The notes beneath the pieces are model-generated. The model was not told the DNA's origin and did no database searches. It saw nothing but the letters and a program-made list of their open reading frames with translations. Source: Sorangium cellulosum (GTDB lineage Bacteria > Myxococcota_A > Polyangia > Polyangiales > Polyangiaceae). From it: DNA of 64,000 nucleotides. The position numbers and the translations under genes were made by a program. Positions 3,258 through 50,006 of the stretch are shown here, piece after piece. Every line of letters begins with the position of its first letter. Within the stretch, counting starts at the first letter, position 1. The stretch is from assembly GCF_001589285.1 (NCBI RefSeq), contig NZ_JEMA01000168.1:1-64000 (forward strand), read 5' to 3'.

Positions 3258-3354
3258 GACCGCGCATCGCGCAGATCGTGCCCGCGTGATGCGCGACCGC
3301 GCATCGCGCAGATCGTGCCCGCGTGATGCGCGACCGCGCATCGCGCAGATCGTG
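3258..3354 (+). repeat. 37-bp tandem repeat, 2.6 copies, with internal dyads
   Basis: Units begin at 3258, 3295 and 3332; the third stops after 23 bp. Each unit contains GCGCATCGCG and, downstream, CGCGTGATGCGC, which can pair as a hairpin. The array lies between tssC and the start of the M13 peptidase and ends 13 bp before that gene's ATG, so it occupies the promoter/leader region. Confidence 0.85.
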
Positions 3355-47056: not shown

Positions 47057-47184
47057 GGCGGCCCGCGCGCGGCGCGCGGGCGGCGCGCGGGCGTGCTTGA
47101 ACGCCTTCCGCCTGCGGTCCTCGCGGTGCATAGTGGGGCTCCCCGACGGCGCGCCGCGCCATGGGCCCACAAGGAGAAACCATC

Positions 47185-48351
47185 GTGTCCCAGCCTCCGC
47201 TCACCCAGCTCTCCGACGAGGAGCGCCTCTTCCGCGACTCGGTGCTTGATTTCGCCCGGAAGCGCGTCGCGCCGCGCGCGGCGGCGATGGACGAGCAGGG
47301 CGCGCTCGACCGCGATCTGCTGCCCCCGCTCTTCGATCTCGGCCTGATGGGCATCGAGATCCCGGAGGCGTACGGGGGCTCGGGCGCGAGCTTCTTCAAC
47401 GCGATCCTCGCGGTCGAGGCGCTCGCCGTTGTCGACCCGAGCGTCAGCGTGCTCATCGACGTGCAGAACACCCTGGTGGCCAATGCGCTGCTCCGCTGGG
47501 GCAGCGAGGCGCAGAAGGAGAGCTACCTCCCGCGGCTGAGCCGGGAGTGGGTCGGCTCGTATGCGCTGAGCGAGGCGGGCTCCGGCTCGGACGCGTTCGC
47601 GCTCGCGGCCCGGGCCGAGCGCAAGGGCGACCGCTGGGTCTTGAACGGCCGCAAGCTCTGGATCACGAACGCGAACGAGAGCTCGCTGTTCCTTGTGTTC
47701 GCGAACATCGATCCGTCGAAGGGCTACAAGGGCATCACGGCGTTCGTTGTCGAGCGCTCTTTCCCTGGGTTCTCGGTGGGCAAGAAGGAGAACAAGCTCG
47801 GGATCCGCGCCTCCAGCACGTGCGAGCTCGTCCTGGAGGACTGCGAGGTGCCGGAGGGCAACGTGCTCGGCGAGGTCGGCAAGGGCTACAAGATCGCGAT
47901 CGAGACGCTCAACGAGGGTCGGATCGGCATCGGCGCGCAGATGCTCGGCCTGGCGGCCGGCGCGTTCGAGCACGCGATGCGCTACATGGGCGAGCGGAAG
48001 CAGTTCGGCCAGTCGATCGCGAGCTTCCAGGGCGTGCAGTTCCAGTATGCGCGCGTGGCGATGGAGATCGAGGCCGCGCGGCTCCTTGTCTACAACGCCG
48101 CGCGGCTCAAGGACGCGGGCCAGCCGTTCGTGAAGGAGGCCGCGATGGCGAAGCTGTTCGCGTCCGAGGTGGCCGAGCGGACGGCGTCGCTGTCGATCGA
48201 GTTCATGGGCGGCGTCGGCTTCACCAGGGATTATCCGGTCGAGAAGCTCTACCGCGACGCGAAGATCGGGAAGATCTACGAGGGGACGTCGAACATGCAG
48301 CTCTCGACGATCGCGAAGCTCCTCCAGGCGGAGTACGATGTGAAGGGGTGA
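47185..48351 (+). CDS. Acyl-CoA dehydrogenase (short/branched-chain type)
   Basis: A 388-residue FAD enzyme. Recognisable segments: the N-terminal helical domain, YALSEAGSGSDAFAL and LNGRKLWITNANES (FAD and substrate binding), ERKQFGQSIASFQ, the FMGGVGFTRDYPVEKLYRD motif, and KIYEGTSNMQ with catalytic Glu366. It oxidises acyl-CoA to enoyl-CoA in the cytoplasm and feeds electrons to ETF. The match is closest to short/branched-chain dehydrogenases of amino acid and fatty acid breakdown. GTG 47185 is preferred over ATG 47161 because AAGGAGA lies between them at the right distance. A strong hairpin follows the stop. Confidence 0.95.
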   Translation: MSQPPLTQLSDEERLFRDSVLDFARKRVAPRAAAMDEQGALDRDLLPPLFDLGLMGIEIPEAYGGSGASFFNAILAVEALAVVDPSVSVLIDVQNTLVANALLRWGSEAQKESYLPRLSREWVGSYALSEAGSGSDAFALAARAERKGDRWVLNGRKLWITNANESSLFLVFANIDPSKGYKGITAFVVERSFPGFSVGKKENKLGIRASSTCELVLEDCEVPEGNVLGEVGKGYKIAIETLNEGRIGIGAQMLGLAAGAFEHAMRYMGERKQFGQSIASFQGVQFQYARVAMEIEAARLLVYNAARLKDAGQPFVKEAAMAKLFASEVAERTASLSIEFMGGVGFTRDYPVEKLYRDAKIGKIYEGTSNMQLSTIAKLLQAEYDVKG

Positions 48352-48373: not shown

Positions 48374-48426
48374 GTGGGTGCGTGGGCGGCCGCGAGGGGA
48401 GGACTGGCATGCAGCAGAAGGAGTGC

Positions 48427-48552
48427 GTCTCCCGGTCCTCGTCTCCCGTCTCCCGGTCCTCGTCTCCCGTCTCCCGGTCCTCGTCTCCCGTCTCCCGATC
48501 TTCGTCTGCGTCTTTCGTGCGCGTGCGCGTGCGCGTGCTCGTGCTCGTGCTC
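48427..48552 (+). repeat. 21-bp tandem repeat followed by hexamer repeats (left arm)
   Basis: A 21-bp pyrimidine-rich unit GTCTCCCGGTCCTC + GTCTCCC repeats at 48427, 48448 and 48469, with a diverged partial unit at 48490. From 48517 come three GTGCGC and three GTGCTC hexamers. The stretch 48495-48520 is one arm of a perfect 26-bp inverted repeat. Confidence 0.95.
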
Positions 48553-48700
48553 GCTCCTGTTTGATCCCCGTTGAGCCCGGAATCCTCCTTTTCCTCGCAA
48601 CTGAGCCCGCTCCTGCAACGGCTTCACGAGCATGGCTCTCCTCGATCACAAAAACATGCTCATGAGAATGTGTCGCGGGTGATCGCATGAATGCACAATC

Positions 48701-48788
48701 GCGCACGCGCACGCGCACGAGCACGAAAGACGCAGACGAAGATCGGCAGAGGCGAGACGGGAGACGGGAGACGGGAGACGGGAGACGG
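48701..48788 (+). repeat. Hexamer and 7-bp tandem repeats (right, inverted arm)
   Basis: Three GCGCAC hexamers (48701-48718), then the right arm of the 26-bp inverted repeat (48721-48746), then five GAGACGG heptamers (48754-48788). This is a mirror image, on the other strand, of the order seen at 48427-48552, with 200 bp of AT-richer spacer between the 26-bp arms. Confidence 0.95.
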
Positions 48789-48840
48789 GAGGGCAGGTTG
48801 CGCAGGTCAGCTGCGGTAGCGGGTCGAGCGAGAAGCAATC

Positions 48841-48981
48841 TCACCTGGATCGAGCGCGCGCCTGGGCGACGACCTCATCCCAGGTAAGCCTTACCGGCCC
48901 CTCGGCCTCGAGCTCATCGAGACGCCGATCGAGCTGCTCGCCCCGGCTCAATCGGGCGATGTCCAGCGCGGCCTTGGCCAT
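48841..48981 (-). CDS. Short addiction-module antitoxin-like ORF, probably truncated
   Basis: A 46-residue frame from ATG 48981: KAALDIARLSRGEQLDRRL at the front and PVRLTWDEVVAQARAR at the end. These resemble the N-terminal helix and C-terminal end of PF09720-type addiction-module components (usually 65-80 residues), with the middle shortened. No toxin gene of the RelE type is adjacent, so it is more likely a remnant than a working antitoxin. It borders the inverted-repeat region. Confidence 0.4.
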   Translation of the reverse strand: MAKAALDIARLSRGEQLDRRLDELEAEGPVRLTWDEVVAQARARSR

Positions 48982-49039: not shown

Positions 49040-49519
49040 TCACGGGATCTGCCGCTTGATGTTCGTCATCCACCGGAGCGTCGACACCTGCTGCGGCAGG
49101 ATCACGTCCCGCACCAGGACGTGCGACTCGGTGTCGAGCTCCTCGATGTCGTTCCGGTAGTCCTTGAGGCCATGGCCCTCTCCCTCCGCCAGCACCGAGA
49201 GCGCCGTCTTGTAGCCGAGCGCCACCGCAGCCCGCTCGACCGCCTTGGCGAACGCGCCCCACGGGCCCGAGCTCTCCGGCGGATCGCCCCCGAGCTCCTC
49301 GATCCGGCGGCGCAGCAGCTTCACCCGCGCCTCGTGCGACGCCAGGTTGAGCCGGAGGTGCTCGGCCACCCACCCGCCGCCCGCGGCGGCGATGGCGTGA
49401 CGGTAGGTCTCGACCGCGGAGATCTCGCCGCGGCAGAACGATTTGAGCTGCTCGATCGAATCGTCGTCGATCAAACCGTCCAGGCCCACGCTCTCGTCTG
49501 CGAATGCGATCGGTTCCAT
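49040..49519 (-). CDS. DUF2383 ferritin-like four-helix protein
   Basis: A 159-residue, mostly helical protein matching the DUF2383 family (PA2169-type): DDDSIEQLKSFCRGEISAVETYRHAI, LASHEARVKLLRRRIEELGG and a long last helical pair (ALSVLAEGEGHGLKDYRNDIEEL). Glu and His residues spaced on the helices (for example EISAVETY) could bind a di-iron centre as in ferritin-like proteins. The function of the family is not established; it is often stress-related. AGGAGGG precedes ATG 49519 at 6 nt. Minus-strand stress-type genes follow upstream at 50007 and beyond. Confidence 0.8.
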   Translation of the reverse strand: MEPIAFADESVGLDGLIDDDSIEQLKSFCRGEISAVETYRHAIAAAGGGWVAEHLRLNLASHEARVKLLRRRIEELGGDPPESSGPWGAFAKAVERAAVALGYKTALSVLAEGEGHGLKDYRNDIEELDTESHVLVRDVILPQQVSTLRWMTNIKRQIP

Positions 49520-50006
49520 GGGGACCCTCCTGAGGTGTCTGTGAACGCCGTTCCCTTCCTCCTTACCTCCCGAGCAGCGGCCTCCGCGCGGGCCGTCCAC
49601 GCCAACCTGTGAGCGAAAGCGCCAACCATCGCCTCACAGCGGAGATCGCACGACCCTCTTGCCTCAGGGGTACAACCTTGCCACACGCCGAGTCAGCCTC
49701 GGCTGATCTCCATGGATATCATTCAAGCCCCGTTCCACCCATCCGGAACCTCCGTAAATCCCGAGCGGGCTCATCTGACGCTGTCGAAGCAGATTCCGCC
49801 CGATCAGCGTTTCAGATACGTCAGGAGCGTAGCGTCTCCGTCCGAGGCGCGGCGCGCCGGTCCAGGACGCCGATCAGCTCGAAACACCCCGAAATGAAGA
49901 AATTTGAACCACCTAGACATGGAGGGCACGGAGTTTTTCTTGTGTTCCTCTGTGCCCTCTGCGCCTCTGTGGTTCATTTTCTCGGGGTTTCGACCTGTTC
50001 GATGTC
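49520..50006. other. Intergenic region of about 490 bp with a palindromic element
   Basis: No gene is supported. The segment 49874-50001 is an interspersed palindrome (listed separately). The rest is less G+C-rich than the genes around it and must hold the promoter of the DUF2383 gene. Confidence 0.5.
49874..50001. repeat. CACAGAG-type palindromic interspersed element, copy B
   Basis: Outer arms: CAGCTCGAAAC at 49874 and its near-complement GTTTCGACCTG at the right end. Inner arms: ATTTGAACCAC with GGAGGGCACGGAG on the left, and the inverse of AATGAACCACAGAGG with GCAGAGGGCACAGAG on the right. The element could fold into one long imperfect hairpin. Its core is the same as at 1251-1290. Such elements look like non-autonomous mobile repeats; no transposase or RAYT gene is in the window. 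Confidence 0.6.

What the first reader, a model, noticed from the sequence alone, without database searches (positions are those of the whole stretch)
48427..48788. Mirror-arranged tandem repeats around a perfect 26-bp inverted repeat
Left: 21-bp pyrimidine-rich repeats, 26-bp arm, GTGCGC/GTGCTC hexamers. Right, in reverse order and complement: GCGCAC hexamers, 26-bp arm, GAGACGG heptamers. The spacer is clearly AT-richer. The polypurine/polypyrimidine tracts could form triplex DNA, and the whole could extrude as a cruciform. It may be a strand-switching duplication, a mobile-element end pair, or a chromosome-structuring site.
Basis: seen in the sequence. Interest (0 to 1): 0.55.

Follow-up and report, generated by a model that had tools for sequence, protein, structure and literature searches.

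The report
Decayed mirror-armed hairpin mobile element
This mirror-image repeat looks like the gutted remains of a small jumping element that normally carries one gene between two matching arms of repeats, a kind of element that turns up in many bacterial groups and seems not to have been described.

Summary
In detail: 48426-48791 holds mirrored heptamer and hexamer arrays, a perfect 26-bp inverted repeat and an AT-richer core. It is not a singleton. Related copies lie on nine other contigs of this genome, at least 21 places in Sorangium So ceGT47 and 39 in So ce26.

[quoted passage not shown] The window copy keeps that gene's first 8 and last 8 codons; the middle is deleted.

The architecture is general. 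Matching inverted arms (score at least 40) flank 48 of 76 IVP genes from many phyla, against 0 of 401 shifted positions in the same DNA. None of 80 IVP loci lies in rRNA. Seven of 9 GxxExxY nuclease genes (PF13366) have such arms too.

Elements appear mobile. The window site lacks it in 4 of 4 relatives with both flanks. In another genus an element sits where sister genomes have overlapping convergent stop codons (CTAG), with a 2-4 bp duplication. dN/dS among copies there is 0.03-0.08.

Best reading: an internally deleted copy of a hairpin element related to 23S-rRNA IVSs but free-living between genes. How it moves is inferred.

The parts
48426..48791 (.). whole mirror-armed element, internally deleted copy
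48426..48507 (+). left outer arm, GTCTCCC heptamers in a 21-bp higher-order repeat
48495..48520 (+). left copy of the perfect 26-bp inverted repeat (linker between the two arrays)
   Evidence: read directly
48515..48553 (+). left inner arm, CGTGCG then CGTGCT hexamers
48554..48699 (+). core: conserved leader of the IVP gene, gene remnant and gene 3' flank
   Evidence: 79% and 81% matches to the full element of So ceGT47
48632..48682 (+). 16-codon remnant of the IVP (PF05635) gene: first 8 and last 8 codons, deletion junction at 48655/48656
48700..48725 (-). right inner arm, mirrored hexamers
48721..48746 (-). right copy of the perfect 26-bp inverted repeat
   Evidence: read directly
48754..48791 (-). 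right outer arm, GAGACGG heptamers
47161..48351 (+). left neighbour, acyl-CoA dehydrogenase gene (context, convergent)
49040..49600 (-). right neighbour, DUF2383-like gene, below Pfam's cut-off (context, convergent)

Best explanation
The feature is a non-autonomous, internally deleted copy of a small dispersed element whose full form is one IVP/S23p four-helix-bundle gene between two mirror-image arms made of tandem heptamers and hexamers. SHOWN: the window core is that gene with its middle missing; the architecture recurs around IVP genes in many phyla; copies are dispersed; sites are empty in relatives; one locus gives a clean insertion at CTAG. INFERRED: (1) the arms fold into a long hairpin (RNA or extruded DNA) that the IVP protein, an Avd/S23-like bundle, recognises; (2) the element enters the 3' ends of genes, mostly away from promoters, by a DNA-level, reverse-transcriptase-independent reaction with a short staggered cut; (3) the arms stay matched because slippage expands the units and template switching across the hairpin copies one arm onto the other; (4) copies that lose the gene, like this one, persist as relics or are moved in trans.
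For: Gene remnant. Full-length copies with an intact PF05635 gene inside matching arms in So ceGT47 and So ce26. Inverted-arm score at least 40 in 48 of 76 IVP loci against 0 of 401 shifted positions in the same loci, Mann-Whitney p 1e-33. Arms are pair-specific: own median 45, cross-pair mean 21, 15 of 76 above every cross pair. A partly overlapping Polyangiales sample: 10 of 24 against 0 of 43. Window site empty in 4 of 4 relatives with both flanks. Another locus empty in 4 sister genomes seen in sequence, CTAG at the junction. Elements 84-89% identical with unrelated flanks at six loci of one 4.2-Mb genome. dN/dS 0.03-0.20. Fold: S23 family 2gsc and 2rld, then Avd. No Y1 transposase in 4 Sorangium genomes; no RVT_1 in G049, G069, G077. 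Orientation: 13 convergent, 16 co-directional, 1 divergent of 30 scored out of 52.
Against: 28 of 76 IVP loci do not reach the arm score of 40, and 3 score only 16, no better than chance. In G040 both flanking arrays run in the same direction, not mirrored, around two convergent IVP genes. Within Sorangium the GTGCGC arms are so alike that only 4 of 37 elements have their own partner as best match; dominant hexamers agree in 21 of 37 against 13.3 expected, part of which is genome-level similarity. No transposition was observed and no catalytic domain is known in IVP. Other G040 copies showed no obvious CTAG junction. The window insertion is not clean: a neighbouring gene pair is partly lost.
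Confidence: 0.72

Rival explanations
1. A bidirectional transcription terminator or mRNA 3'-end stabiliser kept by the host: a long RNA hairpin between convergent genes; the IVP gene in some copies is incidental.
For: Strong folding on both strands; position after stop codons, 29 of 30 scored elements lie downstream of at least one gene; sister genomes have short ordinary hairpins at one of the sites.
Against: Does not explain arms around IVP genes in many phyla, empty sites, the gene remnant in the core or purifying selection on the gene.
Confidence: 0.12
2. A MITE or REPIN moved in trans by an ordinary transposase of the host genome, with IVP as a passenger or helper.
For: Inverted ends, internal deletion, dispersal; short duplication at one site.
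Against: No Y1 (RAYT) transposase in the four Sorangium genomes; arm sequence is not conserved between elements, unlike transposase-recognised ends. Other transposase families were not tested.
Confidence: 0.1
3. Mutational by-product: a tandem array inverted and copied by template switching at a replication fork, with no mobile element behind it.
For: Arms consist of tandem repeats and stay matched as units drift, as hairpin-templated repair would give.
Against: Shared cores and a shared gene at unrelated sites; arms specific to IVP and GxxExxY genes, 0 of 401 and 0 of 48 shifted positions.
Confidence: 0.05

Closest known systems
Intervening sequence (IVS) of bacterial 23S rRNA, e.g. Coxiella burnetii (PMC4990558, passages read)
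   Same: Complementary ends around an S23p/IVP reading frame, a few hundred nucleotides long; spotty, probably horizontal distribution.
   Different: The IVS sits in 23S rRNA helices and is cut out by RNase III; here none of 80 IVP loci lies in rRNA, the arms are tandem heptamer/hexamer arrays, and copies are dispersed between protein genes.
Avd accessory protein of diversity-generating retroelements (4dwl, 8ub7)
   Same: Same fold as the IVP model, TM mostly about 0.75-0.79; the resemblance is in print (PMC10053308, passages).
   Different: Sequence identity about 10%; template and variable repeats were not sought; RVT_1 is missing from three genomes with matches to the elements.
MITEs (recalled)
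   Same: Short inverted-repeat elements, mostly internally deleted relatives of a gene-bearing form.
   Different: The gene-bearing form codes for IVP and no transposase; the end sequences are not fixed.
REPIN/RAYT elements (recalled)
   Same: Dispersed intergenic hairpins.
   Different: No Y1 transposase in the four Sorangium genomes searched.
Repetitive hairpin-forming elements of sponge mitochondria (PMC2800124, search listing only)
   Same: By title and abstract start, repeated hairpins that invaded intergenic regions.
   Different: Listing seen only; whether they carry a gene was not read.

Membership tests
23S rRNA intervening sequence (IVS) | located inside 23S rRNA | tested here: not met
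   Rfam at gathering score: nothing in the window; no rRNA in any of the 80 IVP loci
23S rRNA intervening sequence (IVS) | complementary ends around an S23p/IVP gene | tested here: met
   met for full-length relatives; in the window only a 16-codon remnant is left
23S rRNA intervening sequence (IVS) | excised from RNA by RNase III | not testable with these tools
   needs RNA work
PF05635 (23S_rRNA_IVP) | profile score over 33.8 bits and S23 fold | tested here: met
   L122 gene 80.5 bits; model pLDDT 95.8 matches 2gsc and 2rld. The window remnant itself is too short to score
MITE (non-autonomous transposon) | inverted ends kept, interior of the parent lost | tested here: met
MITE (non-autonomous transposon) | parent element codes for a transposase | tested here: not met
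   the gene-bearing form codes for IVP; no transposase seen inside the arms
MITE (non-autonomous transposon) | target-site duplication | tested here: inconclusive
   2-4 bp with TA(G)/CTAG at one G040/G049 locus; not seen at the window site or in other G040 copies
REPIN/RAYT | Y1 (RAYT) transposase in the genome | tested here: not met
   no PF01797 match in G000, G001, G004, G005
Diversity-generating retroelement | reverse transcriptase with the Avd-like gene | tested here: not met
   RVT_1 absent from G049, G069, G077, which have matches to the elements; adjacency in other genomes not tested
Diversity-generating retroelement | template and variable repeats | not tested
   none sought

The most novel reading that the evidence does not exclude
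A broad, unrecognised class of bacterial mobile elements: a single small gene (IVP/S23p four-helix bundle, or the GxxExxY PD-(D/E)XK nuclease) between two arms of mirror-image tandem repeats that are kept matched to each other while their unit sequence drifts freely. They insert at gene 3' ends (including overlapping stop codons at CTAG), need neither a known transposase nor a reverse transcriptase, and shed many gene-less hairpin copies such as the one in this window. The 23S rRNA IVS would then be the special case that landed in rRNA.
Probability: 0.4. Interest if true: 0.88.

Novelty: new variant of a known kind. Interest (0 to 1): 0.72.

Why it matters
IVP/S23p proteins have had solved structures for two decades without a known function, and are read as rRNA curiosities. 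Tying them, in many phyla, to a recurrent genomic architecture with empty sites and purifying selection makes a concrete test possible: does IVP bind its own arms, and does the pair move? It also explains a class of long mirror repeats in high-GC genomes that look like assembly errors, and offers a natural system for how inverted arms are kept matched. The parallel with GxxExxY nucleases suggests that the arms are a shared strategy of unrelated small genes.

Tried and rejected
Assembly error: rejected, the architecture recurs in complete genomes. Known RNA family: none in the window or over the elements. The first Pfam scan of the L076 core was made in a wrong frame with stops read as X and gave nothing; the right frame is. 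REPIN/RAYT: no Y1 transposase in the four Sorangium genomes. Dependence on reverse transcriptase: weakened by three genomes without RVT_1 that have matches to the elements. CTCTGTG arms as a general IVP feature: only 2 of 80 loci; in G000 that motif belongs to a GxxExxY element. Own-partner test inside Sorangium: weak, 4 of 37; in that script the left hexamer array of L076 was missed because the excluded middle was set too wide. Clean junctions in further G040 copies: not found. Literature: searches listed no paper that by title, abstract start or term counts links IVP or GxxExxY genes to tandem inverted arms; only open-licence papers are held, and I read passages of two.

Rows dropped before counts: the tool kept 80 of 303 relatives; 4 of 80 lacked flanks; 6 of 30 Polyangiales loci lacked flanks, and some of these genomes overlap the named scan. 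Of 15 PF13366 rows, 9 were scored: 4 are partial domains and 2 are one back-to-back gene pair whose coding sequences are themselves inverted. A first, rougher PF13366 pass is superseded. Of 52 Sorangium elements, 22 gave no usable gene orientation (19 undetermined, 3 called inside an ORF).

Full report
What is in the window. The finding is real and exactly placed. Reading the sequence and the repeat tools gives, from left to right: heptamers GTCTCCC arranged as a 21-bp repeat (48426-48507), a linker, CGTGCG/CGTGCT hexamers (48515-48553), a core of about 145 nt, mirrored hexamers (from 48700), the mirrored linker, and GGGAGAC heptamers (to 48791). The perfect 26-bp inverted repeat is 48495-48520 with 48721-48746. 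Both strands fold as RNA 13 to 14 standard deviations better than shuffles. Rfam has nothing in the window at gathering scores. The left neighbour is an acyl-CoA dehydrogenase on + (47161-48351), the right one a DUF2383-like gene on - (49040-49600, below Pfam's cut-off), so the element lies between convergent genes.

It is one of a family. A DNA search of the same genome returned the element, arms on nine other contigs (eight two-armed, one one-armed), a tenth contig with the core alone, and array pieces at some contig ends. Same-genus genomes carry many more. Counting by hand the separate places listed, which are truncated lists, gives at least 21 in G004 and 39 in G001. A pattern for hexamer arrays facing each other hit 3 of 8 genomes (13, 6 and 6 forward hits, overlapping registers included), and the reversed control pattern hit none. 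Some copies are one-armed.

The core is a gutted gene. In So ceGT47 one element (L076) has a core of about 450 nt with an intact 115-codon gene that matches PF05635, 23S_rRNA_IVP, with E 1.4e-21 (80.5 bits). The window core aligns to it in two pieces that abut: 79% over 48428-48658 and 81% over 48655-48791. What remains is the ATG at 48632, eight codons in all, then directly the last eight codons and the stop at 48680-48682. The leader before the gene is conserved too. Other copies have lost more: L016 keeps only the gene's 3' end, and L017-L024 keep short stretches that resemble both ends of the full core (read by eye).

Intact copies in Sorangium. PF05635 matched in 3 of 5 genomes searched, 7 places; G000 itself has no intact copy. 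Four of these lie between mirrored arrays: G001:3119154 (GTGATC and GTCTTTC units on both sides), G004:1214908 (GTGCGC), G004:3803402 (GTGGTC with CAACGTG spacers, mirrored) and G003:2468097 (GTGGTC/GTAGTC). The arm sequence differs between elements while the two arms of one element match. Two further places (G001:7323192 and 7323559, two IVP genes together) show no clear mirrored arms, and the seventh (G004:364650) is below the cut-off.

The architecture is general. A scan of genome contigs with the Sorangium IVP alignment found 303 relatives, of which 80 were returned, from Myxococcota, Planctomycetes, Chlamydiae, Verrucomicrobia, Legionellaceae and others. For 76 with flanks I aligned the 350 nt before the gene to the reverse complement of the 350 nt after it. 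A score of at least 40 was reached by 48 of 76, against 0 of 401 positions shifted by 1.1-1.7 kb in the same loci. Arms match their own partner: own median 45, mean of cross pairs 21, and 15 of 76 beat every cross pair. Many of the arms printed run in hexamers beginning CGT. A second, partly overlapping sample from the order gave 10 of 24 against 0 of 43. None of the 80 loci holds rRNA; the Rfam matches were four tRNAs, one SRP RNA and one group II intron domain. In the order, 87 of 144 genomes carry PF05635.

Mobility. At the window site, both flanking genes were found in G001, G002, G003 and G005, and none of the four carries the element; G004 has the left gene but a different right side. 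A further G000 copy (L019) has an element at the same place in G001, with differently built arms that are mirrored in each, while G003 and G005 have a short ordinary hairpin there. A G005 copy (L094) faces an empty site in G001. The clearest case is outside Sorangium. In G040, 4.2 Mb, six loci fetched carry elements of about 1.1 kb, 84-89% identical, with unrelated flanks. The copies read through have two convergent IVP genes behind strong hairpins, between CACTGN arrays that here run in the same direction rather than mirrored. At one of them (L236), sister genomes G069, G077, G081 and G126 show two convergent genes whose stop codons overlap, at CTAG in three and at TTAG in G081; G124 agrees by coordinates only. 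In G040 one stop codon lies at each end of the insert, and G049 has a deleted copy flanked by CTAG on both sides: a 2-4 bp duplication. Other G040 copies did not show this plainly.

Selection. dN/dS is 0.12 between the So ceGT47 and So ce26 genes, 0.20 between L117 and L118, and 0.03-0.08 among four G040 copies. The protein is therefore being kept, also between dispersed copies in one genome.

The protein. AlphaFold2 gives pLDDT 95.8. Foldseek finds XCC0516 (2gsc, TM 0.87-0.93), the S23 family protein BT_0352 (2rld), and then Avd of a diversity-generating retroelement (4dwl, 8ub7; TM mostly about 0.75-0.79, E 0.03-0.2). That PF05635 resembles Avd is in print (PMC10053308, passages). The 23S rRNA IVS of Coxiella, 428 nt with a 28-bp stem and an S23p frame, is the nearest described element (PMC4990558, passages).

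A second gene in the same kind of arms. G000 carries, at the site where G005 has an IVP-type element, a different palindrome with CACAGAGG arms (L283). The same arms flank an intact GxxExxY nuclease gene (PF13366) elsewhere in G000 (L289). Among 9 full-length PF13366 loci of the order, 7 have arms scoring at least 40, against 0 of 48 shifted positions. So two unrelated small genes share the architecture.

How it may work. Shown: gene between matched arms, dispersal, empty sites, gene loss with arm retention, purifying selection. Inferred: IVP binds the hairpin, insertion is a DNA-level reaction, and template switching keeps the arms equal. Against a REPIN origin, no Y1 transposase was found in the four Sorangium genomes. 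Against a need for reverse transcriptase, G049, G069 and G077 have matches to the elements and no RVT_1. Sites avoid promoters: of 30 elements with both neighbours called, 13 are convergent, 16 co-directional and 1 divergent; 13 against 1 has a two-sided sign-test value of about 0.002 (worked by hand). A side effect on transcription ends is likely.

Limits. 28 of 76 IVP loci fall short of the arm score of 40. The within-Sorangium partner test is weak because GTGCGC arms are alike (4 of 37 best; hexamers agree in 21 of 37 against 13.3). The window insertion is not clean. Whether the element still moves is unknown. Absence from print rests on nine searches of an open-licence library.

Noticed in passing
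window 48852-48981 (-): Shortened remnant of a small gene that is intact in G005 (73 codons) beside a second small gene; by eye they look like an addiction-module antitoxin and a ParE/RelE-like toxin (names recalled, no profile search). In the window the partner is missing next to the element.
   Followed up: partly
L289 1434-1918 (G000:C825) and L283 (G000:C236:30811-31159): A GxxExxY nuclease gene (PF13366) between CACAGAGG arms, and what looks like a gene-less relative of it at another site in the same genome.
   Followed up: yes
L146 1355-1432: Group II intron domain match about 270 nt before an IVP gene with perfect 43-nt inverted arms in a Legionellaceae MAG.
   Followed up: no
L232-L237 (G040), L243-L245 (G084): Variant elements with two convergent IVP genes; the arrays at the two ends of G040 copies run in the same direction.
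   Followed up: partly
L028 1540-1780 (G000:C1001): Array-like GTGATCGTGCGC stretch that matches the hexamers but may be a histidine-rich coding repeat, probably unrelated.
   Followed up: no
L099 1951-2050 and L279: Another intergenic hairpin kind with CGCCAAGG units (CTTGGCG on the other side) close to or at sites of the elements in G005.
   Followed up: no
window 3258-3354: A perfect 37-bp tandem repeat, 2.6 copies.
   Followed up: no
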